This document shows positions 4,001 to 31,921 of a DNA stretch of 64,000 nt, in pieces. Numbering within the stretch: position 1 is the stretch's first letter; each line of letters starts with the position of its first letter. Both the position numbers and the translations under genes were made by a program. The stretch lies in assembly GCA_916613615.1 (NCBI GenBank), contig OU744724.1, positions 24,042,171 through 24,106,170 on the forward strand, in the 5' to 3' direction. The notes below the pieces were generated by a model that was not told the DNA's origin, ran no database searches, and saw only the letters and a program-made list of their open reading frames with translations. This DNA is from Steromphala cineraria (Eukaryota > Mollusca > Gastropoda > Trochida > Trochidae).

Positions 4001-4554
4001 TCTCCGCCGCACAAGATGCAAACATTCGGTAACTCTGAGATTATTTCTAATAAGTTATCATGGAAAATAGTAATTCCATTTTTACATTCTAAATGAGATT
4101 GATTATACCAAGTAGATGCTTCTGGGTGGATATATGCACATGCATATAACAGATCATTATCAAAACCAAACATTGTTTTATCAAATACAATGAATATGCT
4201 ATTTTCGGTGATTTTTTTAGATTTTATGAACTTTCTGAATTGATTTCTTACAAACACTATGATTCCGCCAGAAAGCCTCCCAAAATTTGATATTTTCTCT
4301 GCATGTTTGGTAATTGATAAATAATCTGGAAAATGTCTTATTAAGTCAATGTCATTACACCAAGTTTCAGTGAAGCCAATGATATCAAATAACTTAACAT
4401 ATTCAATAAACTCGTTATCAGTGAACTTCTGTTTCAGGCCAGATACATTCCAAAATATGAAATTAGCAATGTTATCTATGTATGGAAGGTAATTGTCATT
4501 TGTATTATTTTCCTGTTGGAACTTCGAAGAATCTTTTAGACCCTGGCCACGCCT
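1033..4554 (-). CDS. LINE ORF2: endonuclease and reverse transcriptase
   Basis: This frame codes the replication enzyme of the retrotransposon: it nicks target DNA and copies the element RNA at the nick. An apurinic-type endonuclease comes first (N-V-S-G, T-E-T-W and G-G-D-F-N-A-R motifs, then S-S-H-L-P-L). The reverse transcriptase follows, with NNYRGITLLS, VDFAKAFDSV, GVRQGCVLSP and the catalytic LLFADDIVLIS near 2210-2235. The C-terminal end (about 1300-1180) has a cysteine/histidine cluster, CQLC then EDEYHF and C-P-I-Y. The frame is open from directly after the ORF1 stop at 4557-4555. Its first AUG is only at 4173, downstream of the first two endonuclease motifs, so an AUG start would remove part of the active site. 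About 1173 codons are open. Expression by readthrough or reinitiation is inferred. Confidence 0.9.
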   Translation of the reverse strand, partial: RRGQGLKDSSKFQQENNTNDNYLPYIDNIANFIFWNVSGLKQKFTDNEFIEYVKLFDIIGFTETWCNDIDLIRHFPDYLSITKHAEKISNFGRLSGGIIVFVRNQFRKFIKSKKITENSIFIVFDKTMFGFDNDLLYACAYIHPEASTWYNQSHLECKNGITIFHDNLLEIISELPNVCILCGGDFNARTGTKPDFIEDDILEFTENENYSFIESIFDCFNLKRFSVDKTVNNFGTHLLDLCSVLNIHMMNGRCGSDSETGDFTYIGPNGASVIDYIIASSVLFDSVNDFNIPSRAESSHLPLTLQLRTLHSHQADVRDTDSKTGFKFVWDMDKLEQFRQNLLSDDVQNLFDKSVDNAFTCIDRSIKYIVEALSLAASDMKRNVKKANSYANDWYDTECRKLKVQRCRSLNKFRKCKDLTSLENYNKTRNEYDSLCKRKRMEYYRNKQSIIENSINDSKRFWNELKRLNVKPTDVNNIDTEHWFDHFKKLYSCENIPDSDHNDFEDDVFINHSDVDCELTKQILDSPITREEIFESINNMKLKKSPGVDNMIPELFRYSADLLTPYLDLLFNLIIEKGTFPKEWSMGIIIPLHKNGDLDNVNNYRGITLLSIFSKIFTSIINKRLVFWGETMDKLTECQAGFRQGYTTIDNMFILQSIVQRYLNVKGGKFYALFVDFAKAFDSVKRNKLWNILNKHGLSPKMSNLLRQIYENVKACVRNKNILSETFEIQIGVRQGCVLSPFLFSFFINELATQIENNCTHGIQLHPDIFQLFLLLFADDIVLISSTVMGLQRQIYELENFCMQSKLTVNLDKTKVVVFKNGGKLAKHERWYYNKCKLETTNSYKYLGVYFTSQLSWALHAKYAAVQAKKVLLGILRQLRILGDLNMNSFFKIFDVKISPILLYGAEIWGLNTFAKLEMVHLYACKKFLGVKQNTPSVMVYGECGRFPLYIYSYCKVIRYWMKLVYMPSYRLPKKCYDMMLLFDRNGHKNWVTDVKQLLFSTGFGNIWHNQENGIYPEFIKTFSQRLKDIYFQNWQAKLSLSSKCDTYQLFKRNIHTEYYLSCLNVKKYRISLARFRCSSHELYIEKGRYINISREQRICQLCQSNEIEDEYHFLLVCPIYSSIRKKYIKEKYYVHPNMLKFSKLLNSLDNKEIENLSMYIFYASVYRNHIVT

Positions 4555-5763
4555 TTATCTGCGCCGATTCCTGTTTGAGCCACGAGGATCAGTTCTGTTC
4601 TCACGACTCTGGTCTGCTCTCGGTGCCGAGTTGGCCTGTGCACTACTTGACTCTGTGGGCCTCCCTGAATCTTGCTGGGTGCTGGTCTCACTTGTGCTGG
4701 GTCTCACGATCGTATCCTCTTTGGCTACATCCATTAACTTGCTCCCTTTGAAGAAGAATCTTCTGTCCGGGTGCCTCGTTCGCTGCCTGTATAGCTCTTG
4801 TCTCTGTAATGTAGTGAGGTCGTTCGCGATGCCTATTCCCTGTTCCTTGAGTATGTCCCTCATCTTAACAGAATGCCACTTGTCTTCCCAGTGCTGCATC
4901 CTCACGATGACAGGTCTGGGGGCATCAGTCTTCCGGGTAGAGATCCGATGGGCTCTCTCTATATCACGCGGGACAAGAGGGGGTAACTTTTTCTTGTCAC
5001 GAGCAATATTCAGGATTTCTATGACCTTTGCTTTACTTTCTGTATATGTTTCTTTTTGTGAAGCCTCTTGAATCCCATAAAGCACCAAATTATTCCTCCG
5101 GTTCCTTTGTTCCTGTTCTTCAATTCTCTCCTCTAAACCTTCTATGTAGCCGTCAATATCACACAGTTTTTCATTTAGTGCATCCATATCCGTTCTTAAG
5201 ATTTGCTGTTCCTGTTTGTTTGTCTCAAATTCACTTCTTAATTTACAAATGTCAGATTTAATGAAGTTTACGTCCTCTTTTATCGATTTTATGTCAGAGC
5301 GTACTCTTTCTTCCGAGTCATTTATTTGTTTCACGATGTAGTCTCTCATCTCATCTAGTTCACGGTTCGCAGGACCGGGGTTGAGTTCGATGTCTCCAGC
5401 TAGATGTATTGTCGAGGGTAAGAACGTGTAAGCTGATGGCGAGAGTTGTGAGTTGGGCGATCTGTGTAAGTGGGTCCAGCTTGTGACGTCACAGCCCTGA
5501 CATGCATGTAAACAATGATCGCTTATCGATCGGGAAGTGAACATGCTATCAAAGTTCATCATCAAGTGTTCCCCATAACTTGTAAGAGAGAAGCCAAGTA
5601 TCAAGTGAACAGAAATCACAAATGCACATATTGAGAGGCGATAAGGCATATCCGAACTGTCACTGAACGGGGTGTACCTGTAATCAACATGGTCGATCTG
5701 ACGTGTCCCGGTTGGATGTTTAAATCGTCCGATCCTCGCTCTATAGAGCGATATGTCAATCAT
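4555..5763 (-). CDS. LINE ORF1: RNA-binding coiled-coil protein with 2A motif
   Basis: A 402-residue protein. Residues 41-60 form a hydrophobic segment (SICAFVISVHLILGFSL) that could act as a signal or membrane segment. A 2A motif follows at 123-131, then a heptad-rich coiled coil (about 133-225) and an RRM-like core of the L1 ORF1p type (RRNNLVLYGI, then ERAHR and RPVIVRM). The tail is rich in Ser/Thr/Arg/Asn and ends in basic residues. By family knowledge ORF1p coats the element RNA and acts as a chaperone. ORF1 ends in TAA directly followed by the open ORF2 frame with no frameshift. The start at 5763 is the first in-frame AUG I see; a second Met at residue 39, just before the hydrophobic stretch, is an alternative start. 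Confidence 0.85.
   Translation of the reverse strand: MIDISLYRARIGRFKHPTGTRQIDHVDYRYTPFSDSSDMPYRLSICAFVISVHLILGFSLTSYGEHLMMNFDSMFTSRSISDHCLHACQGCDVTSWTHLHRSPNSQLSPSAYTFLPSTIHLAGDIELNPGPANRELDEMRDYIVKQINDSEERVRSDIKSIKEDVNFIKSDICKLRSEFETNKQEQQILRTDMDALNEKLCDIDGYIEGLEERIEEQEQRNRRNNLVLYGIQEASQKETYTESKAKVIEILNIARDKKKLPPLVPRDIERAHRISTRKTDAPRPVIVRMQHWEDKWHSVKMRDILKEQGIGIANDLTTLQRQELYRQRTRHPDRRFFFKGSKLMDVAKEDTIVRPSTSETSTQQDSGRPTESSSAQANSAPRADQSRENRTDPRGSNRNRRR
5371..5397 (-). other. 2A (StopGo) ribosome-skipping motif in LINE ORF1
   Basis: Residues 123-131 of ORF1 read GDIELNPGP, matching the 2A consensus D-V/I-E-x-N-P-G-P. In known 2A peptides the ribosome fails to join the last Gly to the following Pro and continues, giving two proteins from one frame. 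Here that would release a leader of about 130 residues with the hydrophobic segment, and an ORF1p starting at Pro131. Activity is inferred; the motif is seen directly. Confidence 0.85.
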
Positions 5764-5915
5764 GATGAATGAACGAATGCTCTACAATGCTAGATGATCT
5801 ACCTCTACCACTTTAGATACTTGGGAAGGATGATAAATTACCAAATTACCCACTTTCTTTCTCCGCTGTTGATATGACACGACTGCTTAGTAGGGGCGCA
5901 TAACTCTTCGATTCT

Positions 5916-14005: not shown

Positions 14006-14011
14006 TTTATT
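14006..14011 (-). terminator. Poly(A) signal AATAAA at the end of the TRMT61B-like gene
   Basis: On the minus strand an AATAAA overlaps the TAA that closes the long last-exon frame (which includes SWNEILDECEENG and GCLVKEKK). This supports a transcript end here, even though the reading frame of the last exon is not settled. Confidence 0.5.
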
Positions 14012-17000
14012 TTCTTAAGAAACAGGAAGTTGCTTTTGTCATACACAACTCTACAGCATACAGTTTCTTTTCCTTCACAAGACAACCATTTTCTTCACAC
14101 TCGTCCAAGATTTCATTCCAGCTGAACCACCTTCTGCAGAATTGCTATAAAACCTATTGCAAACAAGAAGTTTACAATTATTTTTACAATATTCATTTAA
14201 TAATTTCTTTGAAATGCATTGATCTTATAACTGGCAATAAGAGGGGCTCAAGAATTTACTATATATATACTTATGTTTACTATATAAGAAATTACTATAT
14301 AAGTAGGATACTATTTCTCTTTTGATTAAGGACTAAATTTGATTTGTCTGTCAAGTTGATTTTGCATATTTTGCCAAGGGGGCTTAAAGGCACCACTCGA
14401 CCGCGTTTCGTCCGCCATTTTGAAACGTTAGCATTCCGAGAAAACAAATGTGCTGTATTATGCTTATTCATTAATAAAATAAAGAAATAATTACTTGACT
14501 GATATAAGAAGAGTATATTCACAAATAATTCATAATAAAAGTTACCAGTTACAACAACATTTTGTCGTAATAATGCATTCCACGGTCGTAGCTTCGAAGA
14601 TTGGCTTCATTTCACGATTTTTTTAATTTTCGAGCGATACACTTTATTCTTTGGCAAATTGTTTAATCTTTAACAACTGCAATGCTAACCTTACAATCAT
14701 AATTGAAATTAAGTGTGAAATTATCATGTAAAAATCATTTATAACTGTAAACAGGAAAGTCCTCCTGAATTTCGTTTCCACAAAAAATACCCCGCTCGAA
14801 TGGTCCCTTTAAGTATTCTCATGCATATTGCCAAGGGGGCTTAAGTATTCTCATGCATAGCATGCTCCTCTCAATAACTGGCAATGGGTTTAAATGTAAG
14901 TGCACATTGTTATTGTATTGTTAAGTCTTGTATTAGGGAAGGAACACTCTCAATGCTTAAACTGTGATAGGGAATTTGCATTACTTGTAGGTTGTTGTTG
15001 TGATAGACATATTGATGTAGTTTCTCACCTGAGTTTGAACATGTCGTCTTTTGTTTTGGTCGACAAACATAAGGCCAATTACTTTCATCATATTTCAAAT
15101 CTGTGAAATCAAAACATGTCAATAAACAGTAGACATCAAAGTCAAAATTGTTAAAAAAAACATAAGATATGAATTTTATGTAAGGTGAGTTGTACTTTGA
15201 CGAGTTGATGGGTTAGGTTCTTTAAGAATAAATTTTAAAAATAGAGCCATGGGCTCTGTAGCTCATCAGGCATCATATCAAGTTTGCTTTATACAGGCCA
15301 GATGAGTTAAAAATGAAACTGATGTTTTCTATTGCAAGAAAACCTATAAAAAAATGACAAAACAAATGTAACGATTTCGGAATAAATTTCCTTACCCAAA
15401 TGATTTATTATTATTCAACACTTTCTAGATCGCCAATATTAGACAGTAAAAGAAGTCCAAACTAAAATATCCAAGGAGAAATAAATTTGCCATAGACTGT
15501 CATCTAATGGAGAAAAATAGGTTTTTAAGATTGTGACCCCTGTGACCCTATTTGGGGTCATGGGGTCACGAAACCTACAGTTTAGAATCCCCATTGGCCA
15601 AGGAGTCTGCACATATAATTTCAGCTCTCTAGATCTTTTGGAACTTAAGAAGAAGATGAAAGTAGGTTTTTAGGGTTGTGACCCCTGTGACCCTATTAGG
15701 GGTCACAGGGTCAACAAAGTTACAAATTAGAATCCCCATGGTCCAAGGAGTCTGCACATATCATTATTAACTCACTAGACCTTTTGGAACTGGAGAAGAA
15801 GATGAAAATAGGTTTTCAAGGTTGTGACCCCTGCGACCCTATTTGGGGTCCCAGGGTCACCAAAGTTACAAATTAGAATCCTAATTGTCCAAGGAGTCTG
15901 TACATATCATTTTTAACTCTCTAGTCCTTTTGGAACTGGAGAAGAAGATGAGAATTGGTTTTTAAGGTTGTGACCCCTGTGACCCTATTTGGGGTCATGG
16001 GGTCACGAAATCTACAATTAAGAATCCCCATTGGCAAAGGAGTCTGCAGATATCATTTTCAACTCTATAGTCCTTTTAGAACTGGATAAGAAGATGAAAA
16101 TAGGTTTTTAATGTTGTGACCCCTGTGACCCTATTTGGGGTCATGGGGTCACGAAATCTACAATTAAGGATCCCCATTGGCCAAGGAGTCTGCACATATC
16201 ATTTTTAAATCTCTAGTCCTTTTAGAACTGGAGAAGAAGATGAAAATAGGTTTTAAAGGTTGTGACCCCTGTTTCCCTATTTGGGGTCACAGGGTCACCA
16301 AAGTTACAAATTAGAATCCCCATTGTCCAAGGAGTCTGCACATATCATCTTTAACTCTCTACTCCTTTTGGAACTGGAGAAGAAGATGAAAATAGGTTTT
16401 TAAGGTAGTGACCCTTGTGACCCTATTTGGGGTCACAGGGTCACCAAAGTTACAAATTAGAATCCCCATTGGCCAAGGAGTCTGCACATATCATTTTTAA
16501 CTCTCTACTCCTTTTGGAACTGGAGAAGAAGATGAAAATAGGTTTTAAAGGTTGTGACCCCTGTTTCCCTATTTGGGGTCACAGGGTCACCAAAGTTACA
16601 AATTAGAATCCCCATTGTCCAAGGAGTCTGCACATATCATCTTTAACTCTCTACTCCTTTTGGAACTGGAGAAGAAGATGAAAATAGGTTTTTAAGGTAG
16701 TGACCCTTGTGACCCTATTTGGGTCACAGGGTCACCAAAGTTACAAATTAGAATCCCCATTGGCCAAGGAGTCTGCACATATCATTTTTAACTCTCTACT
16801 CCTTTTGGAACTGGAGAAGAAGATGAAAATAGGTTTTAAAGGTTGTGACCCCTGTTTCCCTATTTGGGGTCACAGGGTCACCAAAGTTACAAATTAGAAT
16901 CCCCATTGTCCAAGGAGTCTGCACATATCATTTTTAACTCTCTACTCCTTTTGGAACTGGAGAAGAAGATGAAAATAGGTTTTTAAAGTTGTGACCCCTG

Positions 17001-20000
17001 TGACCCTATTTGGGGTCACAGGGTCACCAAAGTTACAAATTAGAATCTCCATATGCTAAGGTACCTGTACACAAAATTTCAGCTCTCTAATGTGTATGGT
17101 TCATGAGGAGAAGTCGAAAGTGTCAAAAGTTTACGGACGGACCGACGGACGGACGGACGCCGGACGACGGGCCATGCCATAAGCCCATCTGGACTTTCAG
17201 TCCTGATGAGCTAAAAATGGTTAAGTTAAAGTTATAAAGATGTTTCATTACCCTCTTGTGATTTGGCTATTTTCACTGGTTGAACAAGCCATTCCCTCTC
17301 CCTCTCTTCACACACTTGTTTGATGTGCAAAGGGAGATTATTCTTCTTTAAATACTCATCCAATTGAAGAATAGATGTCACACTGAAAGCAAAGATTATG
17401 CAAGATAGTGTATATGATAACTTTAAGCAGAATATAATGCAGTGACATCTGAATTTACATGATGTTGTAAAATAAAGTGGTTAGTGAATTAAACAAACGT
17501 TTTATCAATTAAATAGAGAACAAAGTGAAAAGGACTTAAAAGTAAAACTATCAAAATACCTTGGAAAAAACACTGCAACACACTTTCCCATCTTTAATCT
17601 TGCAGAGATGAAAGAAAGATGTTTCACAAGACTGTTCATTGGCAAATCAGATGATATCTGAAAATAAAGCAATGCACACACTTCAATAAACAAAGCAAGT
17701 AAAAAAATAGAGCATTTGGCTCTGTAGCTTATCAGGCTTTACATTTGATTTTGCTTTAGGGTGTGGCCAATGTGGTTCCCCTCTTAGTAAGGGCCACAGG
17801 GTCACAAAATCAACAATTATTAATCCTCGCTAGTCAATGAGTCTGTACACAAAGTTTCAGCTTTCTAGGCCTTATGCTTCTTGAGAAGGAGATGAAAATA
17901 GGTTTAAAGGATGTGGCTGTTATTAGGGGCCACAGGGCCACCAAAGCTACAATTTATAATACTCACTAGTCATATAGTCTGTACACAAAGTTTCAGCTTT
18001 CTAGGCTTTATGACTGGAGAGAAGATGAGAATAGGTTTAAAGGATGTGGCCTCTGTGGCCCTTATTAGGGGCCACCAAAGCTACAATTTATACCCCTCAC
18101 TAGCCAAGGAGTCTGTACACCAAGTTTCTGCTTTCTGGGCCTTATGGTTCTGGAGAAGAAGTTGAAATTCCACAAAGCTTACGGACGGACGTCGGACACC
18201 ATGGCATGCCATAAGCCCATTGGGCCTTACACCCCAGATGAGCTAAAATCAACTTCTTGGATTAATTTGTTGTACTTATCAGCTAGCTAGACCTAGTTAT
18301 CTAATTACAAAGAAGAATAACACAAAAACAAGCATTGATTTTATTCTTACTCCATCAAATTGGATATCCGGGGATAATTCATGAATGTCAGCTTCCAAAT
18401 GAATCTTCATTGACACGTCTTTCCCTCTTCTTTGAGATATGATCTCTCTCCATGTCTCAAGGTTATTCACACAATCCTCCAAGACCTCCCCCATTTCAGT
18501 CACACAGTATACTTCCCCTGTCTCTCCTACTGGAAAGGGAAAAATAGAGCCATGGGCTCTGTAGCTCATCAGACTTATGATTGGGATAGTTATTTAAGGT
18601 TTTGACCCCTGTGACCCCAATTGGGGTCAAGGGTAACCAAATGTAAAATTTAGAATCTAAATTGACCAAAGAGTCTACACACAACTTTTCAGCTCTCTAG
18701 ACCTTTTGGAACTGGAGAAGAAGATGAAAATTGGTTTTTAAGGTTTTGACACCTGTGACCCCATTTGGGGTCTTCGGGTCATGAAATCTACAATTAAGAA
18801 TCCCCATTGGCCAAGGAGTCTACTCACAACTTTTCAGCTCTCTAGACCTTATGGAATTGGAGAAGAAGATGAAAATAGGTTTTTAAAGTTTTGACCCCTG
18901 TGACCCCATTTGGGGTCATGGGGTCACGAAATCTACAATTTAGAATCCCCATTGGCCAAGGAGTCTACTCACAACTTTTCAACTCTCTAGACCTTTTGGA
19001 ACTGGAGAAGAAGATGAAAATAGGATTTTAAGGTTTCGACCCCTGTGACCCCAATTGGGGTCATTGGGTCACAAAATCTACAATTTAGAATCCCCATTGG
19101 CCAAGGAGTCTACTCACAACTTTTCAGCTCTCTAGACCTTATGGAATTGGAGAAGAAGATGAAAATAGGTTTTTAAAGTTTTGACCCCTGTGACCCCATT
19201 TGGGGTCATGGGGTCACAAAATCTACAATTTAGAATCCCCATTGGCCAAGGAGTCTACTCACAACTTTTCAGCTCTCTAGACCTTTTGGAACTGGAGAAG
19301 AATTGAAAATAGGTTTTTAAAGTTTTGACCCCTGTGACCCCATTTGGGGTCATGGGGTCACGAAATTTACAATTTAGAATCCCCATTGGCCAAGAAGTCT
19401 ACACACAACTTTTCAGCTCTCTAGACCTTTTGGAACTGGAGAAGAAGATGAAAAAAGGATTTAAAAGGGTTTGACCCCTGTGACCCCATTTGGGGTCATG
19501 GGGTCACAAAATCTACAATTTAGAATCCCCATTGGCCAAGGAGTCTACTCACAACTTTTCAACTCTCTAGACCTTTTGGAACTGGAGAAGAAGATGAAAA
19601 TAGGTTTTAATGTTTTGACCCCTGTGACCCCATTTGGGGTCATGGGGTCACAAAATCTACAATTTAGAATCCCTATTGGACAAGGAGTCTGCACATCAAA
19701 TTTCAGCTCTCTAGAGTCATTGGTTCTGGAGAAGAAGTCGAAAATGTGGTTAAAAAAGGTTACGGATGGACGGACGGACGCCGGACGCCTTGCCATGCCA
19801 TAAGCCCATCGGGTCTTTCAGACCTGATGAGCTAAAAATATAAGTTGACAGAGACCAAAATATTCAAATGATTCCTTTGAATGAATCTTTAATAAAGAAT
19901 TGTTCTGTAATCAATATTACTAGTTGCATGCAGTCAGGTTTTTAAATGTCAATTTCATATTTGTTAATATTGATGAAATCTTCATGAAAAGAATACCTAC

Positions 20001-23000
20001 ATTGTAAGTTCAAAAAGCATTTTAATGTTAAAGTTCACATAACCACAAACATATTTCATTATTTTCTTTGGAATATAGAAAGTCTGATTACAATATTGTA
20101 TAGTGCGTTAAAGATCGCTACTCAAATATGTTTAGTTTGGTAATGAAAGTCGTTTTTGAAAGCCGCTTAGACCTATCTGACAAACAAATGAATGCATGAC
20201 TGGTCACGCCCCCATTTTGTGACGTCATAAACAGAATCAGCCTCATTATCTATACATCTATCGTAACAATACCTCAGAAAAAAAACCCAATAATTAACGA
20301 TTTTCAGAAAATGTTTTCCACTCAGTTAGATAAATCATTTGACAACGTAACACTACTAAGCATTTGGTGTAAAAAGATATCTACATCAATGGTAATTAAA
20401 CATTTATTTAGGCGGTATTTCAGTTGAAATCGAAAATCGAGAAGTGGTAAGGTCGAGGTTAGTTGATGTTTAAATACAAAACCTCCTTCACCCTTAATTC
20501 ATTCTTCTTGATTCATCTCAGATCTAAATAAAAGTAATGGGGTATAAGGGACTATATGTAAGGATGTGGATAAAAAACAGTTATTCTTCATCACTCCAAA
20601 TTTTAAACTGCCATTCGAAGAGTCTAGATTGAAGGCATTCTATTTACTCTAAGATCACCTGTCAAAGAAGGAATTCATATCAGTTTTGTAAAACAACCTT
20701 TATGATCATAACAAACTTAGGTGACTCTATGTTAAATGTATTATCCCCCGCCTCGCGTTTAGCGTAAAGCGGGGGATATAGTATTGAGCAGCGTCCGTCC
20801 GTACGTACGTACCCCGACGGATGAAATTGAGTAACTCAAAAACTATTGACTATTTTCATTTTTTGTATATAGCAATCACCATGAGAGCAAGGTCCCTCTA
20901 GAGCAGGGTTCGAAATTAGTCCTATTGGGGCACTAGCCATTCGGACTAGTGCATTACAGTGAGCACTAGCCCAAAGATATTCTGACTAGCCAAATACACC
21001 AATATAATCATATTTTCTTTAAATTCAACTAGTCCTTCGGACTACCAATGATTGCACTTTACTAGCCCAGCAACTTTTTCACTAGCCATTGGCTACCGGG
21101 CTAGTGCTAATTTCGAACCCTGCTCTAGAGGTTCATGACCTTGACCTTCATTTCAAGGTCATTACGAGACTTTAACATTTCACCCTTGTCAGCGGGATAT
21201 CTCAAGAACCATTTACTGGATTCTCTTCATAATTTACACAAAGCATCTTATTGAGGAAGCGCCGGGCCCAGTCGATTTTGGTGACCTTCACATTATTTTC
21301 AAGGTCACAGCGAGACTGAAAATTTCAGCATTGAAACCTGCATTTTGGGCTTGTCAGCGGGATATCTCAAGAACCATTCACTGAATTCTCTTCATAATTT
21401 ACAAAAAGCATCTTATTGGGGAGGCGCCGGGCCCAGTCGATTTTGGTGACCTTCACATTATTTTCAAGGTCACAGTGAGGCTTATATATATGGAAGACCC
21501 AGGGACCAGTTGATTTGTTGTGGTCTAAATGACATCTAGTAGCATGACAAGTGTAGACAAGTGTTTCTATGTATACAGTATGCATTTTGTTCACATCAAT
21601 TTGCGGCGGGGGATCTTGTCACCTTTGTGACAAATACTTGTTTAACTAACAGATATATTTTCTCATTTGTACCTGTCTGAGAGAAATATGCTGCTGATGC
21701 TGTACACTGATTGATTTGTCGACCTATGTGAAGCATGGTGTCCCCCTTCTTTACATCTAGTGCATGACAAATCAGTCGGTAGAGCTGAATAAGAAGACCA
21801 TATAATCTTAGCATTACAATCAAAATTTCATCAGAAATCAAGGGTATTTTTACAGGAATTCACAGAAAAAATAGATCCGTCCTCCAACTGAATTGATATG
21901 AAAAAAACAAATATATATTTTACCAGCATATGTCCTTGGCTTACTAATAACTGAAATGACAGTGAAATCAACATTCAGTACCTAGAATATGTTTTCTCAT
22001 ATGAAACACTTGCCAATTACATCAGATATTATCACACCAGGGGCTTTTGCAGTACAATCATATTTGACATAATACCCACTTAAAAATAGAGCCATTGGCT
22101 CTGTAGCTCATCAGGCATCATATCAAGTTTGCTTTATACAGGCCAGATGAGCTAAAAATTAAACTGATGTTACCTATTGCAAGAAAACCTATAAAAAAAT
22201 TACAAAACAAATGTAACGATTTCGGAATAAATTTCCTTACCCAAATGATTTATTATTATTCAACACTTTCTAGATCGCCAATATCAGACAGTGAAAGAAG
22301 TCCACACTAAAATATCCAAGGAGAAATAAATTTGCCATAGACTGTCATCTAATGGAGAAAAATAGGTTTTTAAGATTGTGACCCCTGTGACCCTATTTGG
22401 GGTCATGGGGTCACGAAATCTACAATTTAGAATCCCAATTGGCAAAGGAGTCTGCACATATAATTTCAGCTCTCTAGACCTTTTGGAACTTGAGAAGAAG
22501 ATGAAAATAGTTTTTTAAGGTTGTGACGCCTGTGACCCTATTTGGGGTCACAGGGTCACCAAAGTTACAAATTAGAATCCCCATTGTCCAAGGAGTCTGC
22601 ACATATCAATATTAACTCTCTACTCCTTTTGGAACTGGAGAAGAAGATGAGAATTGGGTTTTAAGGTTGTGACCCCTGTGACCCTATTTGGGGTCATGGG
22701 GTCACGAAATCTATAATTAAGAATCCCCATTGGCCAAGGAGTTTGCACATATCATTTTTAACTCTCTAGTCCTTCTGGAACTGGAGAAGAAGATGAAAAT
22801 AGGTTTTTAAAGTTGTGACCCCTGTGACCCTATTTGGGGTCACAGGGTCACCAAAGTTACAAAAATTGAAAAAGAGGGGGACCATTTAAAGGTTTAGCTT
22901 TCAATGAAATAAGTGAGTTGTCTTGGTGTTCTAGATCCAATAGTGAACAAACTCTTCCATTTGAATATACTCAAACTTTAATAGCATTTGTGATTTCTAC

Positions 23001-26000
23001 TCACCATATGGAATAAATATACAGTTACCATGCATACATGCAATACCTAGATTACCTCACAGAGTAAGTTACCAGAAGAAAGCGCTTATTGTTTCACGAG
23101 TCAAAAACATGTTTTGGGTGATAAAAAAAAGTGCTTACTGCATCTAATACGGTCTTTAACAAACCTGTAAACTGAGGAGACCTCTGTTCCCATCCAATGT
23201 CTCTACAAATGTCTCAAGAGTCGGATGAGACACTAACAGAGATGGGAAATGTTCCAATTGTAACACACTTCCTGGTTGTGTTCCAATGATGTCACTGTGT
23301 CTCAAGTTGCGCTGTGGCAGTGCAAGCTGGCCAGAATCTGTGAGTTGTGTCACACTCTGGATCTTCTTTCCTTTCCTGTTCTGATTTAGATACTCTACAC
23401 ACACATAGTCACCATAATTAAATATTGAGGAAGAAGTGGAATTAACTCCCTGCTCATCCTTGGATTGTTTGAAAACTTCAGTTTTTATCAGCTTTAGGAT
23501 GAATACTGAAAGAAAAACAAACATTTGAGAGCGAAAAATCTTTATTAAGTACTGGATAAGTACTTCAAATAAATTTTTGTATCTTAATACTTTTTAAATA
23601 TCACCTGTTAAAAAACATATTATTACAATAGGAAATACAAAATAATAGGAAATACAAAATACTATGAAATAAAACAATTCTTCATGGCAGAAAGATAGCA
23701 CATTTCGATGTGGATACCACAAGTTAAAAAGTAAAAACATAATTACCTTGCAAATAAATCTTGCTTAACAAAATTTTCAGTTGCATGAAATATTTATTGT
23801 TAAAAACAACTGATTTTAGTCTACAATTTACTTTAATTATCATAACATATATATTATAAATCAGAAATAAAAAGAATTACGTGTTTGTCTTTCATCACGT
23901 TTGTAAGGATGGCATTTATTCTCAGCTGAAATTCAAAGAATGAAATATCAAATCAACTGTTGAATTAATGCAAAAATAGATGCAAAATTTGTTTTTTTAC
24001 AGGTATTGCAACTCATTATCAAAATCAGAAAATTTAAAATTGGACACTGGCTATCAATAGATATATCAGTATGCTACAGATAAAGTAAAAACCCTTTTTA
24101 ATTCAAACAATCGGTTTCAAAAGAAATTGATGAGAATGTTTTTGATAAGCATTGATATTCCAAATAGCAGTATTTAAGATTGGTATCGTTCATCATTTCT
24201 GTATTGCAAATTAAATAGCAGGTTGTTTTTATATTGCAATATACCAATATACAGATAATACCATGCATCCTTTAACAGTATCCATTAGATGTCTCTTCTA
24301 ACAAGAAATATTATTGTAGCAATAAAAGAATTGATGACAATGAAATTGATGCTGCACCTGCGTTAACTTTCCATAAGGTCAGTGTATCTTCAAAGACTCC
24401 CTCGACTCTCAGTGAAGGACAGGACGTATGTACCGCCCGTACACACGATAACACTGTGCTCACACTGAAATAGTCAAGCATCCTTAGTCTAGTCATGACA
24501 CTAGTGGTATCCAAAATGGATCATAAGAATGTATATGAACAACTAAATTTGAAACTAAGGTGGCCTTTTTTGGCAAGTTGGGCATATTCAACATCATTTT
24601 GAAAACACAACTTTGCTTCTGAGTTGTTCTCACAGGTTTTATTATTTCTATCATTAAACTGTTTTCAAACTTAATATGGAGCATATAAAAATGTAAAAAC
24701 AGCTTTTATCCAAATTTTTTTAATACTTAACAGGAAATTTGATCACTCAGCATGTATACCAGTAGTACAGATTGAAGCTATTGAGGTAAAAGACAAAACC
24801 ATTTTAAGTGACCAAATAAAAATAAAAAACTTGTTGGCAATTGCAATAACGAATATAAGTTAGTGATAGTTTTGTATCTGATATATAAACTTGGTTAAAG
24901 AAAAGATTATTCTTGCAAGAACTTTTCAACATATCTTCCACAGCAAAGCATGAAAACTTTTGGGAACAAATGATATGAACTTCTTAAATAATGCTTCCAT
25001 TATTAAAGTCCTTGTGTCAGTTTTGAAGGGCAAATCATAAAGCTTTAATGCTATCAAAAAATTTACTGAAGGAGTTAAGGTGTTATTTCCGGTCTTGATC
25101 AGATGATAAGATATTGTCCGGTCATACTCTACACAATCTACAATATGACAGAAAGGTTGACCTGCTTATGTTCAGATCTGATAGTATGTGAATGTGATAG
25201 TATGCCAATCTGGGTCCACAGCTGCAACGTCGGATTCAGTTCAACATGACATTTGTGGAATGATGTGGGACACCATGGCTTGAGCCAAAGGACATGGACA
25301 GTGAGTTAGAAATTTCAATATTGAAGCAAAGAATATGCGCAAGAATCTGAAAATTGTTGCAAACAGCAGGGGAAATATTGAAGTAACAGATGAACTGTTT
25401 GCCTGAGATGTATAAATAGAAACAAAGACTTAACTTTACCTTGGTGTATACACAAGAATGACAGCTCCAGCTTTGAGATTTATTGACACATTGTCAAGTG
25501 CATCAACTGGGTTTTTCATGTCCAGAAAAACCTTAAACAGTAATAAAAGAGCAACATAATCCAAAGTAACTGTTACTTCTGACCTGACATAAATTAATAT
25601 TTAAGCTTTTCACATTATTTGAGGGAAATCGTGAACAGGAGGTTTTTTTATGACGAAGAATCTTAAAGGGTTAATATTTGTTTTGTTCATCAACTGATGT
25701 TCCGAATAAATGATCACAATGAATCCAAATCAAAATTTGAGGATGGAAACACTTTGAGCAAAATATGTCTTGCAGTGAGTGAGTAAAATACTTCATTTAT
25801 TTTAAATAAATATCATTTAAATGTTTGAGAGTAAGATCTAATGGAATATATATTGATATTGTATTTATCTATAGGGTAAATAGATAATTATAAAAGAATC
25901 ATACCGCATCAATATCGAATAAATCCTTGTCATTGACCTTTGTGATGTCCCCATGCAAAAATCTGATGTTGTTAGAGGTTTCACATCCAGTTTCATAACA

Positions 26001-28221
26001 CTGATTGTTCCATTTGTCAACATTTTCTTGGGCAAGTTCAGACATAATTTTATTTTTCTCTATGGAGACCACTTGACCACTGCTTCCAACTATGTAAAAA
26101 GGAAGCATACTTGTGAGAAAGAATAACTTGTCTAGTGAAAAGTTAAGAAGCTCATTGGATAGTAAATTTCTTTGTTGCTATAGATGCAATGTGTCATTAC
26201 AGATACGTTAATTGTTATCAACCAATATATCTTGTATTATCAAGGTTTGAGTATCTGCACCAGACCAAAACAAGGAATCTATTGCAATAAAGATTATATA
26301 ACTTGTTCTCCTTCATCAAACTTTTTGAACATTTATTTTTAAGCTGAATGGTTAATATAATGCATTACATCTTACTTTAAACATTGAGCTTTTAACTCTG
26401 TAACAACATCCTGCTACATCAGCGTATATGTCTCCGCGTTAGGCTACAACCTATCCCCTGATATCCTGCTAAGATATTCTGCCGTATCACTATATATAGC
26501 AAGCCAATCAAATGATGCCCTTTCAGCGATAAAGGCAAAGTTGTTTCTTGGCTTTGTTCCGCGTGATTCAAATTAACCAATGGGAGTGCTATTAGATAAT
26601 AAATATGATTCTCATTGTAGGCTCCCGCTAAGCTCCAAATCACGCTCTCTTAGATTTCCACGAGCGACATCACTAGACAACAGTGTATGGAGTTCGAAAT
26701 AGTTTGACTGAAAACAGACAGGCTATAAATAGCGCTGAGTAACCACCCGTCAGCAATACGGCTGAATAGCACAGCAGGATATCAGGGGATAGGTTGTAGC
26801 CTAACGCGGAGTCATATACGCTGATGTAGCAGGATATGTAACAAGGGATTGTTGGACTTAACTCATAAATATGTTTTGTTCTAAGATATAAATAGTTTCA
26901 ACTTGTCATTCTTACAGCTACCTTACATCAAATGTTTACTTTATCAATGTTGGTATGCTATCATAATAATAATAATGCTGACCTGCTCTAGAGAGTAGCA
27001 GGGTTGTCCCCCCTGCTCCACTCCCTGCTTCAAGCACTCGGCTACCTTCGTGAATATCAGCCATGTAAATCATAGAGGTCACCGTCTATGAAAAAGATAT
27101 TGCTTGTTAACTTGTATGTTTATTCATATATATACAGTTTATAAGAAAATTGACAAATTTACCTGTTAAGTGAATAATGTCACATACACAAAATGATATA
27201 AATACACTCTCTCTCATTCAATCAACAAGGCTGCTAACAGAAATATTTTCAAGACTGTATTAAATCAAATACTCAATCATATATATACCTTTGGATTTGC
27301 AGCAACCAATTTTTTGGGTATTAAGGTGATAAAATCTTCTAAAGTTGGAAAAGAGATGAGGGCCATTTTGTTCGAAGTAATCTTAATAATTTGACCAGGT
27401 TCTTTGTGGATAAGTTTATCATGAGACAAATTTCCATATGATTTAATATGGAAGAATTTTCCTTTCTCATGTTTAAACATGTATTTGTATTGTTGAGGTC
27501 CTTTAGTCCATCCAAATAGATTCAGCACAACTAGGCATCCATACTGAATTGTTTTTGGTGAAAATTTTTGCACATGTGTTGCTTCAGATACATTGTGTAA
27601 ATCTATCATTTCTGTCATAGTCACAGAATGATTCTTTACATTTGAATATGGCAAATTAACAGTTTGTTTATCTAGATCTGCAATCAAGTCTTTGGGTAAA
27701 TGTCCACTTAACCTTTGCAAGGGTAACAAAGTCTTTTTTGGAAATTTTGTTCTATTAGGGTTTCTACCATTAATTTCATCATTATTTTGAAAGTTCCTGA
27801 TATCAACATTCATGTTTTTGTCTATCAATTCTTCATCTGGTTCACTCCAGTCAAAATATGATGCAGAAGATTGATTTTTGTGAATTCTGGATTTCTCTGT
27901 AGTAAGTTTTTTTGTTCTTTCAATGTCTTTATCTTTATCAGAGTCAAAAATTCGAGTTGCCTGAAGCTCATGTGGTAAAATATGTGATAGCCTAGCAATT
28001 GGAGACACCATCTGTTTCCGTTGTTTTGGAAAATTTCTCCCCTCATCATAATAAGTTTTTTTATTGACCGGATTATCATCGTCATTTCCTGATCCAAAGG
28101 ATTTTGCAAAGGCTAAAAGTTGCCTGCCAAAAAAGATTTTAGCCCTATCATTTGTAAAATTGAAAACCAACTTTAGCCTTGAAGAAGGTTTCAAACAGGA
28201 TTGGCCCAAATATAAAGCCAT
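14007..28221 (-). CDS. TRMT61B: TRMT61B-like tRNA m1A58 methyltransferase with two modules
   Basis: TRMT61B methylates N1 of adenine 58 in mitochondrial tRNA and also acts on mitochondrial rRNA and mRNA. Exons read from high to low: 28221-27289, 27085-26983, 26089-25905, 25531-25440, 24464-24358, 23505-23165, 21784-21673, 18529-18351, 17657-17560, 17382-17252, 15100-15029, then an uncertain last exon from 14133 to 14007. Every junction up to 15029 has GT..AG ends and matching phase, giving about 784 residues. Exon 1 gives a long N-terminal region with two copies of a P-x-x-RLS-x-x-LP motif (residues 74-86 and 167-179), then the small barrel. Module 1 has VLEAGSGAGG (SAM loop) and FLDMKNP. Module 2 repeats the fold with a degenerate loop. 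Without the exon 5 to 6 splice, module 1 would end by itself at 24311. The last exon could read in another phase than the one supplied by 15029, so the C terminus is unsure. Confidence 0.8.
15237..17215 (+). mobile_element. Tandem-monomer element, copy A (about 11 monomers)
   Basis: It starts GAGCCATGGGCTCTGTAGCT and ends near CCTGATGAGCTAAAAA after a GGACGGACGG run and CATGCCATAAGCCCAT. TAGCTCATCAGG and CCTGATGAGCTA are a 12-bp inverted terminal repeat. The body is about 11 monomers of roughly 145 bp, each with GTGACCCCTGTGACCC, a GGGGTCAC palindrome partner, TCCCCATTGGCCAAGGAGTC and GAACTGGAGAAGAAGATGAA. It lies in intron 10 of the TRMT61B-like gene. Open frames inside it are repeat artefacts. 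Confidence 0.85.
17703..18249 (+). mobile_element. Tandem-monomer element, copy B (GTGGCC subfamily)
   Basis: It has the same ends as copy A (GGCTCTGTAGCTTATCAGG at the left, GATGAGCTAAAA at the right, preceded by ACGGACGGACG and CATGCCATAAGCCCAT). The monomers carry GTGGCCCTTATTAGGGGCCAC instead of GTGACCC..GGGTCAC, so this is a second subfamily. About three monomers. It lies in intron 8 of the TRMT61B-like gene. Confidence 0.8.
18541..19842 (+). mobile_element. Tandem-monomer element, copy C (about 8 monomers)
   Basis: Left end GAGCCATGGGCTCTGTAGCT, right end CCTGATGAGCTAAAAA, with about eight monomers of roughly 144 bp that resemble each other more than those of copy A, suggesting recent local expansion. 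It starts only about 12 bp upstream of the acceptor of exon 8 (18529, minus strand), so one end lies in the splice-acceptor region. Intron 7 of the TRMT61B-like gene. Confidence 0.85.
20751..21625 (+). mobile_element. Element with GC hairpin end, interrupted by a hAT-type MITE
   Basis: The left end is a hairpin (ATCCCCCGC..GCGGGGGAT, about 20745-20789) followed by a CGTCCGTCCGTACGTACGTA run. The right end has GGCGGGGGATCTTGTCAC. The body has two copies of a block of about 180 bp containing GTCAGCGGGATATCTCAAGA and GGTGACCTTCACATTATTTT. A MITE at 20904-21122 is nested in it. Intron 7 of the TRMT61B-like gene. Confidence 0.7.
20904..21122 (+). mobile_element. hAT-type MITE with 8-bp TSD CTCTAGAG
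   Basis: Perfect 16-bp inverted ends (CAGGGTTCGAAATTAG and CTAATTTCGAACCCTG) are flanked by a perfect 8-bp duplication CTCTAGAG at 20896-20903 and 21123-21130. The CAGGG start, 8-bp duplication and TCTAGA core fit hAT elements. It is 219 bp and non-coding, with ACTAGCC motifs inside. Confidence 0.9.
22083..22866 (+). mobile_element. Tandem-monomer element, copy D (right end missing)
   Basis: The left end matches copy A: GAGCCATTGGCTCTGTAGCT and then about 270 bp nearly identical to 15243-15510, followed by four or so monomers. It stops abruptly inside a monomer near 22866 with no terminal block. Intron 6 of the TRMT61B-like gene. Confidence 0.8.
24358..27549 (-). other. Module 1: intact m1A58 methyltransferase domain
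   Basis: The module comprises the barrel (end of exon 1, from about residue 225: QYGCLVVLNL to FPTLEDFI) and four exons. They carry, in order, VLEAGSGAGGTTLLLSR (motif I, glycine-rich SAM loop intact), VGSSGQVVSIE (the acidic residue that usually binds the ribose), FDIDA then VFLDMKNP (motif IV, catalytic-type Asp) and LKAGAVILVYTP. The last exon aligns without gaps to the human ITQVIELL..RDWLV stretch (hydrophobic pattern, with W near its end). Phases at the four intron positions inside it are 0, 1, 0 and 2. The usual C-terminal G-H-T segment of the family is absent; the chain runs into module 2. Confidence 0.8.
26407..26836 (+). mobile_element. MITE with about 65-bp inverted repeats and 8-bp TSD
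   Basis: The left arm (ATCCTGCTACATCAGCGTAT and on, to about 26470) is almost the exact reverse complement of the right arm (about 26772-26835). TGTAACAA occurs directly before (26399-26406) and after (26837-26844). The interior is about 300 bp without a gene. Intron 2 of the TRMT61B-like gene. Confidence 0.9.
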
Positions 28222-28942: not shown

Positions 28943-31921
28943 ATGGAGGGTTCTACACAAAATCTGTCTTCAAGATTATATCAAATCTATGGACCTTTAT
29001 GTCACCAATTTCTCATTCTTTTTCTTTTACATGTGAACTTTTGCATGACAGTTGATGTAAAACCTCAAAAAGAACTTTATCTCCCAGACTACTCTTTTTA
29101 TCACAATCTTAGTTCAATTCAAAGAGAACTTCAAGCTCTTGTTCATAAATATCCGAATTTTGTGAGATTGAACTCAAATTATAAGTCTAGACTTGACCGA
29201 CCACAAATGCTTCTTCAAGTGACAAATTTTACTCATGACTCCTTAAGCACAATAAAAACCGTAAGGAAAGCCAAACTGTTCCTATCATATGGAGAGCATG
29301 CAAGAGAGTTCCTTCCAGTAGAGACAATGTTTTTCCTCATCAAAAACCTGACAGAAGGTATACGCTCCCCAGAAGGAAGTGGTCCATGGTCGTATTCACA
29401 CTATATCCTCACTCATGTGGATTTACACTTACTAGCAATGGCTAACCCTGATGGCCGCATGAATGTTGAGTCTTCGCACAACTATTGCTGGCGGGGAACA
29501 AGTACAGGAGTTGATCTCAACAGAAACTTCAACTGGGAGTATGGCAAGAAGGGCAGTTCGGCTGACCCCGCAGATGAAGAATACAGGGGACCTCATGCTT
29601 TCTCAGGTATTTATTATTCTTCAACTATATGACCATCATACAGTACGTAGTTATACTCAGTGAACAATTGTAACAGATGATGAATAATAATGAGGCAGGT
29701 GGACAAATACCCAATACCTTGAATCATAGTTGACTCTGTCTTATTTTACAAAGATAATATTTAATGATAATCAATAAAGTATGAAAATGCTTTTCTCTTT
29801 CTCCGCTTATTTTGGATTTCATTATCTTTTATGTTTCAGAACCAGAGAGTATAATTTTCCAACAACTTACTCAGGACATCCAGTTTGACTTGTTTATTTC
29901 ATTCCATTCCGGAATTCGTCAGATATACATTCCATACGCAGGTAAGTGTTTGATGTTTATGTTTATGACAAATATATAAGCAGTTAAAGTTGTAATATTT
30001 CGATAAAATATTTTCTGAATGTCCTGATGATTTACAGAGTCACTTGTTATCTTACAGACACATACTCACAGTCTGTTAAACGGAAACCAGCCAATATAAA
30101 TGGGATCACAAACTTGGCACGCCTGCTTGCATCGTCAACAGTACACAGGTACCAGTACGGGAGAGCAATGGATCTGACATACTACACTGCAGATGGGACT
30201 TCCTTTGATTACATGGCAGGTATCAGAAAAGTAAGTTATTTTACTTAAGAGCTTAAATCAGCAGAGCAGAATGACTTGTATGCCGGTAGTACTGCAATTG
30301 CATAGTACTCATCAATAATTTTAAATGATATACATGTACAGGAATAAATTTACCTGCGAGTCCTGCTTCAAATATTCATAAAATTTAGAAAGGACTCATA
30401 GAATTTTAAGCTGCGAGTCCTGTGATGCATATTTCTTTTGTGATCATACTATGTGCTTACTTATTAAAGGACTCATTTAAATCAGCTTGGACTTTTTGGT
30501 AGCAAGTCCCTTGACTCAGAGGGTAATATCTGTAGATTGATCGCTGCATGTATGTGCTTAAAACTTTATTATCATGTTCAATGTTTCAGATTCCCTTCTC
30601 ACTAGCGATAGAGCTGTGGGGAAGTGCCAACCATAGAGGCGCCAGCTGCTTTGATGAGTTCAACCCTAGAAGTGAGAAACTTCAGGTATGTCACAATGTG
30701 AAAGGAATCACAAATATCTTATATTTCGTTAAAATTCAAAGATAATAATTCTTAATTTAAAGGTAAATATAGGAATTTGTTGTGTTCTTTTTTTTTAAAT
30801 GTAATCTAAATTTTAAGAATCTCATTGCTGGATTTATCACTTTATCAAAGGATTTCATTCCAATATCATTGAAATCAAATCATTGATTCTCTCCCTTTAT
30901 ACTAAGATGTTACTGTTTTCTCATCTATGATCTGACTGAATCCAGGTTGTCAGTGAGTGAAAGTAACATCATAATATAAAAACACGAGCAAATAAACCAT
31001 ATGATTTCAATGAGATTGGATTTCCAGGAGTTACATTTCTTGACATTACAGTATGTTATGGAGACTGACTGTGTATAACAGATGTTTTCAGCACTGAAAT
31101 ATTAAACAATGATCTGACGTAAAGAATAAACTGATGAAGTTACATGTTGCTATAGTTGTTTATTGAAAATGATGACCCAACTAGATAATGAAATGTTCTC
31201 TACATATTGTATACTTCACTGTTGATGTTCTCTCCCTAGTATGAGGTCTCGCTCATTCACCCTCTGTACGTGAAACTTCTCCAGTACATGATCCAATGGA
31301 AGACGCCATCGAAATCCATCCAAGTAGAAAAGAGTAACTTGTTGCACAACAAATTTACATCAATGAAGGTTGGTTTTCTTCTTGTGTGAACATGTATTGA
31401 TGGCAACTATTGGTTTAGTAATTTTTGAAATATTGTTTTATAATGATCAGAGTGAATTAATGTTAAATTTGTATACTGCTTCATTGAATAGTGATATATT
31501 CTCTTAATTGTAGTACATATTATTGACTTTGAATATTTTTCCCTAATAATTAAAGTTTTTACTATTTAGATTATAAAAAATCCCTGCAAAAAGTATTGTG
31601 ATGTTTATCGTATAGAATTTTATCGTCATAAGTTTTTTGATAAGTATTGTAGTGTGAAACTCAATAAACTGGCCAGCCACACTGCTCTTTGCACAGATCA
31701 ATTCAGAACCTTAAGGTTTTTTTTCATTATCATTTCAGAAGCCTGCTCCTTCACATTTCACGGTGTATTTGTTTCTGACTGCTGTTGCCTTGGTGATTCT
31801 CATCTTGTTTTCACGATACCGGATAGTAATGTGTCCAGCATGGCAGCATCGACGGCGAGTAATACGACTCAAGACGCTCAGTTCTACACTGTCATTGTGG
31901 GGCTTCGTCAAGTCTATGTAA
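28943..31921 (+). CDS. Membrane-anchored M14 zinc carboxypeptidase
   Basis: M14 enzymes remove C-terminal residues from peptides with a single zinc ion. Exons: 28943-29606, 29840-29941, 30058-30230, 30590-30685, 31240-31368, 31739-31921; phases agree and give 448 residues. A hydrophobic stretch (HQFLILFLLHVNFC, about residues 21-34) looks like a signal or anchor. Zinc ligands are visible as H-A-R-E in SYGEHAREFLPVE and the His of FISFHSG. NPDGR and GVDLNRNFNWEYG supply the substrate-binding Asn-Arg pair, YTADGTSFDYMAG covers the active-site Tyr region and SLAIELWG carries the catalytic Glu. The last exon encodes a transmembrane helix (FTVYLFLTAVALVILILF) and a basic cytoplasmic tail. I infer a type I or tail-anchored surface or secretory-pathway enzyme. 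It resembles little-studied M14 proteins of plants and invertebrates more than pancreatic CPA; the exact subfamily is not clear. Confidence 0.9.

What the first reader, a model, noticed from the sequence alone, without database searches (positions are those of the whole stretch)
14007..28221. Two tRNA m1A58 methyltransferase modules in one gene: an active-looking one and a degenerate one
Ten to eleven minus-strand exons join in phase into one reading frame that contains the TRMT61B fold twice. Module 1 keeps the SAM loop (VLEAGSGAGG) and motif IV (FLDMKNP). Module 2 keeps the fold landmarks (YG..V, HPTLE, VGETGEV, LKMGK, EWLVQP) but has HIGRQIN in place of the glycine loop. Yeast and human cytosolic enzymes pair a catalytic Trm61 with a non-catalytic Trm6, while human TRMT61B is a homo-oligomer. 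Here the same division of labour may have evolved again in a single chain. I do not know of a described mitochondrial enzyme of this form.
Basis: partly seen in the sequence, partly recalled or inferred. Interest (0 to 1): 0.9.

Follow-up and report, generated by a model that had tools for sequence, protein, structure and literature searches.

The report
tRNA methyltransferase with a built-in dead twin
Thirteen exons are predicted to be spliced into one protein that carries a tRNA-methyltransferase module twice; the first copy keeps the methyl-donor site, the second has lost most of it and likely serves as a built-in silent partner, the role a separate protein plays in the cytosolic enzyme.

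Summary
A 13-exon model on the minus strand (28221 to 14113) reads through to 812 residues and holds the TRMT61B module twice. Module 2 matches human TRMT61B (2B25, E 1.5e-9). The six introns of each half have the same phases in the same order (0,1,0,2,1,1), and five of six pairs fall in the same column of the family alignment, so module 2 is an exon-by-exon copy. Exon 7 bridges the modules: it encodes module 1's last strand and module 2's first domain in one frame, with no methionine. Module 1 keeps 10 of 10 scored SAM-site columns; module 2 keeps 3. Against the simple reading, both modules lack four residues at or near the A58 pocket that the family conserves, so the substrate may not be A58. 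TRMT61A and TRMT6 lie elsewhere in the genome; no better TRMT61B was found, by an insensitive search. Best reading: a single-chain pseudo-dimer, catalytic half plus SAM-dead half, working like PRMT7 or Trm61-Trm6. RNA, a structure model and two-module relatives were not obtained. New variant of a known kind.

The parts
27289..28221 (-). exon 1: basic N-terminal leader, two TRMT61B leader motifs, module 1 FKBP-like domain (aa 1-311)
26983..27085 (-). exon 2: module 1, SAM loop VLEAGSGAGG
25905..26089 (-). exon 3: module 1, ribose E356 and adenine D393
25440..25531 (-). exon 4: module 1, catalytic D411 in FLDMKNP
24358..24464 (-). exon 5: module 1, end of the Rossmann core
23881..23925 (-). exon 6: module 1, C-terminal tail, first part
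23165..23505 (-). exon 7, the bridge: module 1 last strand (LFILKLIKTE) and module 2 FKBP-like domain in one frame, no Met
23522..23524 (-). the only in-frame ATG between the last intronic stop and exon 7; lies in the pyrimidine tract of intron 6, poor start context
21673..21784 (-). exon 8: module 2, HIGRQIN in place of the SAM loop
18351..18529 (-). exon 9: module 2, VGETGEV, ribose E lost
17560..17657 (-). exon 10: module 2, ISSDLPMN (Asp kept, conserved Pro lost)
17252..17382 (-). exon 11: module 2, end of the Rossmann core (EWLVQP)
15029..15100 (-). exon 12: module 2 tail, NWPYVCRP
14113..14153 (-). exon 13: module 2 last strand GFIAILQKVVQLE and stop TGA
14006..14011 (-). AATAAA, about 100 bases after the stop; candidate poly(A) signal (17 AATAAA occur on this strand between 28221 and 13500)

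Best explanation
A TRMT61B gene whose exon block has been copied in tandem is predicted to encode one likely mitochondrial protein with two methyltransferase modules, of which the first keeps the SAM site and would do the chemistry, while the second has lost most of that site and likely serves as a fixed, non-catalytic partner. In bacterial TrmI and human TRMT61B equal subunits make the enzyme, and in the cytosol catalytic Trm61 pairs with Trm6, which cannot bind SAM. Here the pair would be covalent: two chains would make a pseudo-tetramer with two active sites. Shown by sequence: two modules, duplicated intron layout, bridging exon, retained and lost residues. Inferred: splicing into one mRNA, import into mitochondria, pseudo-dimer assembly, catalysis by module 1. 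The substrate is likely a mitochondrial RNA, but because residues at and near the A58 pocket are changed in both halves it need not be A58 of tRNA.
For: One chain: 13 exons in phase, GT-AG introns; exon 7 holds module 1's conserved last strand and module 2's first domain in one frame, no Met between residues 472 and 618. Copy of a TRMT61B gene: phases 0,1,0,2,1,1 in both halves, five of six intron pairs in the same column of the family alignment (chance of five exact coincidences about 1e-9 to 1e-11 under random placement); module 2 to 2B25 E 1.5e-9; TR61B_FKBP-like domain in two stretches of the chain; grouping of module 2 with this genome's TRMT61A rejected, p-AU 0.0026. Division: scored SAM-site columns 10 of 10 in module 1, 3 of 10 in module 2; core profile score 125 against 52 bits. 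Precedents: Trm6 lacks SAM binding and pairs with Trm61 (PMC5007650, passages and section 8 read; PMC5372732, passages); PRMT7 has tandem cores with only the first active (PMC12153873, passages).
Against: Both modules lack the Tyr and Asp of YPKD, the Gln of TQ and the tail His (0 of 4 each). Module 2 keeps the catalytic Asp and the adenine Asp, so SAM binding is not excluded by sequence alone. Module 2's first domain has net charge +1 against a family median of +7 and +9 in module 1, which does not favour an RNA-gripping role for it. In 12 pairwise alignments without the family, pair 3/9 is off by 2 residues in all 12 and pair 6/12 coincides in only 5 of 12. No relative with two modules was found in what searches listed. 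Module 2 given alone scores PF21985 at 22.3 bits, below its cut-off of 27. Mitochondrial import rests on composition of the first 45 residues alone (7 K/R, 1 D/E).
Confidence: 0.6

Rival explanations
1. The chain is one protein, but module 1 no longer makes m1A58: it binds SAM and methylates another RNA or another position, or it is a SAM-bound structural factor.
For: Module 1 keeps the SAM site but has N, T, T and Q where 113, 121, 121 and 117 of 121 family rows have Y, D, Q and H; this genome's TRMT61A and a Thermaceae TrmI have all four as well. Human TRMT61B has a second, ribosomal substrate, m1A947 of 16S rRNA (PMC5025228, passages).
Against: The catalytic Asp and the LDMxNP motif are kept; the D335A mutant of human TRMT61B is dead (PMC5025228), so retention suggests catalysis. 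Of the pocket residues named for yeast Trm61 (PMC5007650), module 1 keeps Asp203, has the family's Tyr for Phe229 and a Pro at the place of Pro231; only Gln235 is plainly lost, Gln92 and Pro205 not being conserved in TRMT61B itself.
Confidence: 0.25
2. Two neighbouring genes: a short TRMT61B ending after exon 5 or 6 and a separate module 2 gene starting near 23524.
For: An in-frame ATG exists at 23524; retention of intron 5 gives a stop at 24313-24311 (read); AATAAA occurs in exon 6 and twice in intron 6, ATTAAA once each in introns 5 and 6.
Against: Module 1 would lose its conserved last strand, which lies in exon 7. The ATG sits in the pyrimidine tract of the acceptor, with C at -3 and T at +4. 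Module 2 would have no targeting leader. AATAAA is common on this strand (17 in 14.7 kb) in a 35% GC window.
Confidence: 0.07
3. Module 2 is a decaying remnant with no function, carried along in a working protein.
For: Fast change: end branch 7.6 against 2.7 for module 1; SAM site mostly lost.
Against: Seven exons, 974 coding bases, stay open with GT-AG ends; 36 of 90 family-conserved columns are kept, nine of them where module 1 departs; at 24% identity to module 1 the copy is old, and neutral decay would be expected to break the frame (inference).
Confidence: 0.06
4. Module 2 is a captured TRMT6 or TRMT61A, not a TRMT61B copy.
For: Trm6 is the known SAM-dead partner in this family (PMC5007650).
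Against: No PF04189 match in the chain; genes matching PF04189 and PF08704 lie elsewhere on the same contig; the two TRMT61A introns seen break motif I and a site before SPC, unlike either module; p-AU 0.0026 against module 2 with TRMT61A.
Confidence: 0.02

Closest known systems
TRMT61B (mitochondrial m1A58/m1A947 methyltransferase; human structure 2B25)
   Same: Each module has an FKBP-like domain, Rossmann core and C-terminal strand; module 1 keeps the SAM site and catalytic Asp.
   Different: The 121 rows held are 294-594 aa, the size of one module. Here two modules, 812 aa, and residues at the A58 pocket changed in both.
Trm61-Trm6 (TRMT61A-TRMT6)
   Same: A catalytic half paired with a half that lost SAM binding (PMC5007650).
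   Different: There two genes of different make-up; here one chain of TRMT61B descent. Genes matching both families exist separately in this genome.
PRMT7
   Same: Two methyltransferase cores in tandem, only the first binds AdoMet; a pseudo-dimer in one chain (PMC12153873, passages).
   Different: Protein arginine methyltransferase, another family and substrate; no PRMT domain among the matches here.
Bacterial TrmI
   Same: Same two-domain subunit; homotetramer (PMC4125815, PMC5372732, passages).
   Different: Single module, all subunits equal.

Membership tests
TRMT61B | TR61B_FKBP-like N-terminal domain (PF21985) | tested here: met
   34.1 bits for the chain, cut-off 27, two stretches (only the one at 523-571 is placed); module 2 given alone 22.3 bits, below the cut-off
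TRMT61B | SAM site (motif I E/G/G/G, ribose E, adenine D, catalytic D, and the M, P and Y conserved beside it) | tested here: met
   module 1 10 of 10; module 2 3 of 10, so not met by module 2
TRMT61B | Y and D of YPKD, Q of TQ and tail H, at or near the A58 pocket | tested here: not met
   0 of 4 in module 1, 0 of 4 in module 2
TRMT61B | one module per chain | tested here: not met
   812 aa with two modules; 121 family rows 294-594 aa
TRMT61B | mitochondrial location | tested here: inconclusive
   first 45 aa have 7 K/R and 1 D/E; no predictor on hand
TRMT61B | homo-oligomer | not testable with these tools
   structure prediction switched off
TRMT6 (Gcd10p) | PF04189 domain | tested here: not met
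   no match in the chain; found elsewhere in the genome
PRMT7 | tandem cores, first active, second without AdoMet binding | tested here: inconclusive
   sequence pattern alike; AdoMet binding not measured
PRMT7 | PRMT family domain | tested here: not met
   none among the 15 families listed

The most novel reading that the evidence does not exclude
An animal mitochondrial RNA methyltransferase has reinvented the Trm61-Trm6 split inside one polypeptide by tandem exon duplication, a covalent pseudo-dimer with one live and one SAM-dead half, and has rebuilt its base pocket for a substrate other than canonical A58.
Probability: 0.4. Interest if true: 0.8.

Novelty: new variant of a known kind. Interest (0 to 1): 0.6.

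Why it matters
It would be a third route, after Trm6 and PRMT7, by which a symmetric methyltransferase gained a silent partner, and the first in mitochondrial tRNA modification that my searches turned up. Because both halves sit in one gene with the same intron layout, the origin is legible, and it makes testable what a SAM-dead module contributes: binding, assembly or substrate choice.

Tried and rejected
Relatives: three protein searches. One search gave 2 hits of 7992 scored candidates, both of single-module length (Pogona, Ptychodera). One search, words from module 2 only, gave 0 of 3250. The vertebrate row in the query swamped the list.

Complementary decay: profile scores favour module 2 for the first domain (27 against 13 bits) and tail (4.4 against -3.4) and module 1 for the core (125 against 52), which tempted me to claim complementary division; the charge of the first domain points the other way (module 1 +9, module 2 +1), so I do not claim it.

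Age: the tree pairs the modules at 85/83 with long branches, and an older origin of module 2 is not rejected (p-AU 0.138; 9 of 121 TRMT61B rows and 4 of the 22 loci used). Undated.

Dropped: one search's TRMT61A row was read on the wrong strand (replaced); donor match counts are offset by one base and not used. Alignment A4 misplaces the end of exon 7 and gave no result.

A second TRMT61B: (Ptychodera TRMT61B against the own genome) ranks module 1's exon 2 first (E 0.127) and four weak places on C36 (E 3.4 to 9.1). A canonical copy should score better; but the search saw only one of the 13 exons here, so it is insensitive. (PF08704) also missed this gene's exons.

Full report
What is there. 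On the minus strand, 13 exons from 28221 to 14113 join in phase, with GT-AG introns, into 812 residues and a stop. The stretch after the stop carries AATAAA at 14011, one of 17 on that strand over 14.7 kb, so weak evidence alone. The start ATG has A at -3 and G at +4 (sequence), and the first 45 residues hold 7 basic and 1 acidic residue, as expected of a mitochondrial leader but not proof.

Two TRMT61B modules. A module 1 query (about residues 201-497) matches human TRMT61B 2B25 at E 2.8e-33, a module 2 query (about 499-812) matches the same entry at E 1.5e-9. That 2B25 is TRMT61B is recalled; the entry itself says 'hypothetical protein', PMC4125815 labels it human Trm61 and PMC5372732 lists it under the Trm6-Trm61A complex. 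The modules match each other at 24% identity over 212 residues. Pfam finds TR61B_FKBP-like in two stretches of the chain and GCD14 in module 1 only. Module 2 also has the C-terminal tail, in exons 12 and 13.

The exon layout is duplicated. Introns 1-6 and 7-12 have phases 0,1,0,2,1,1 in both halves. In an alignment of both modules with 121 TRMT61B proteins, made without intron knowledge, pairs 1/7, 2/8, 3/9, 4/10 and 6/12 fall in the same column; 5/11 lies in an unalignable linker, 34 columns apart. Five exact coincidences would have a chance of about 1e-9 (Poisson) or 1e-11 (hypergeometric) if six introns were placed at random in 870 positions. In 12 pairwise alignments of the modules alone, pairs 2/8 and 4/10 coincide in 12 of 12, 1/7 in 9 of 12 (off by one in 3), 3/9 is off by two in all 12, 5/11 is off by 3 to 8, and 6/12 coincides in 5 of 12. 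Phases do not depend on alignment. This genome's TRMT61A has the two introns that I could place elsewhere.

The bridge. Exon 7 begins with LFILKLIKTE, the counterpart of human TAFLVKLRKV (one search shows the human letters), and runs on without a stop or methionine into module 2's FKBP-like domain. The first methionine after residue 471 is 619, inside module 2's core. A separate module 2 protein would need the ATG at 23524, within the acceptor's pyrimidine tract. So sequence alone argues strongly for one chain; RNA would prove it.

What each half keeps. Of 90 columns at least 95% conserved in 121 rows, module 1 keeps 50, module 2 keeps 36, both keep 27. At ten SAM-site columns, chosen from motif I and by counterpart to the yeast Trm61 structure (PMC5007650, section 8 read), module 1 keeps 10 and module 2 keeps 3: one glycine, the adenine Asp and the catalytic Asp. 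At four columns at or near the A58 pocket both keep none: the Gln is the counterpart of yeast Gln235 (PMC5007650); the Tyr and Asp of YPKD and the tail His I assigned from conservation and recall. All four are present in this genome's TRMT61A and in a Thermaceae TrmI, so the change is not an artefact of comparing with vertebrates. Other named pocket residues survive in module 1: Asp203, an aromatic residue for Phe229, and a Pro at the place of Pro231. Both modules read PSV followed by S/T where the family reads (A/P)N(I/V)TQ, a hint that the pocket change came before the copying. The rows are 117 named vertebrates, one acorn worm and three without a name.

Genome context. The window lies on a 75.6 Mb contig of a 1.27 Gb assembly. 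A gene matching PF08704 (TRMT61A by sequence) is at 13.88 Mb and one matching PF04189 (TRMT6) at 55.90 Mb on the same contig, so the chain is neither. The acorn worm TRMT61B finds the window first in the genome, weakly (E 0.127).

Descent. The best tree joins the modules with each other (85/83) and places them with TRMT61B (77/78), with long branches; module 2 with TRMT61A is rejected (p-AU 0.0026), module 2 outside module 1 plus TRMT61B is not (0.138). The copy is old; whether it is confined to this lineage is unknown.

How it likely works. TrmI assembles as a tetramer, TRMT61B is reported to do so too, and Trm61 with Trm6 makes a heterotetramer, Trm6 being unable to bind SAM (PMC5372732 and PMC5007650, passages). 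A chain with a live and a SAM-dead half would fill two places of such a tetramer, as PRMT7 does within its own family (PMC12153873, passages). The catalytic Asp, whose loss kills human TRMT61B (D335A, PMC5025228, passages; that D411 is its counterpart is from alignment and recall), is kept in module 1. Whether the product is m1A58 is open because of the pocket.

Papers. Nine searches gave listings with the starts of abstracts; passages were read in five papers (PMC5025228, PMC5372732, PMC5007650 with one whole section, PMC4125815, PMC12153873). TRMT61B with mollusc, oyster or bivalve gave 0 papers each. The library is open-access only.

Noticed in passing
27289-28221 (aa 69-89 and 162-182): The short TRMT61B leader motif (L-S-P-L-E-R-V/L-S-x-L-L-P) occurs twice in exon 1; weight-matrix scores 8.3 and 6.9, next best place -6.5; 43 of 121 family rows match the pattern I used to build the matrix; the HMM built from them reports only the first (1.3 bits). 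Two leader motifs for two modules; role unknown.
   Followed up: partly
28946-29632, + strand: Start of a zinc carboxypeptidase gene (Peptidase_M14, E 1.1e-22), head to head with this gene about 0.7 kb away; a shared promoter region is possible.
   Followed up: no
15500-20000 and 22300-22900: Introns of the module 2 half hold many near-copies of a 'tgaccccaaatagggtcacaggggtcac'-type unit, seen by eye; 22200-22450 resembles 15350-15600.
   Followed up: no
1033-5781, - strand: Two long open frames of 1173 and 408 residues; the larger reads like a non-LTR retrotransposon reverse transcriptase (by eye, not searched; the smaller has no Pfam match at E 0.001).
   Followed up: no
G000 C36 51.73-51.82 Mb: Four weak matches to the SAM-loop stretch of TRMT61B within 90 kb (E 3.4-9.1), perhaps a clustered family of other methyltransferases.
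   Followed up: no
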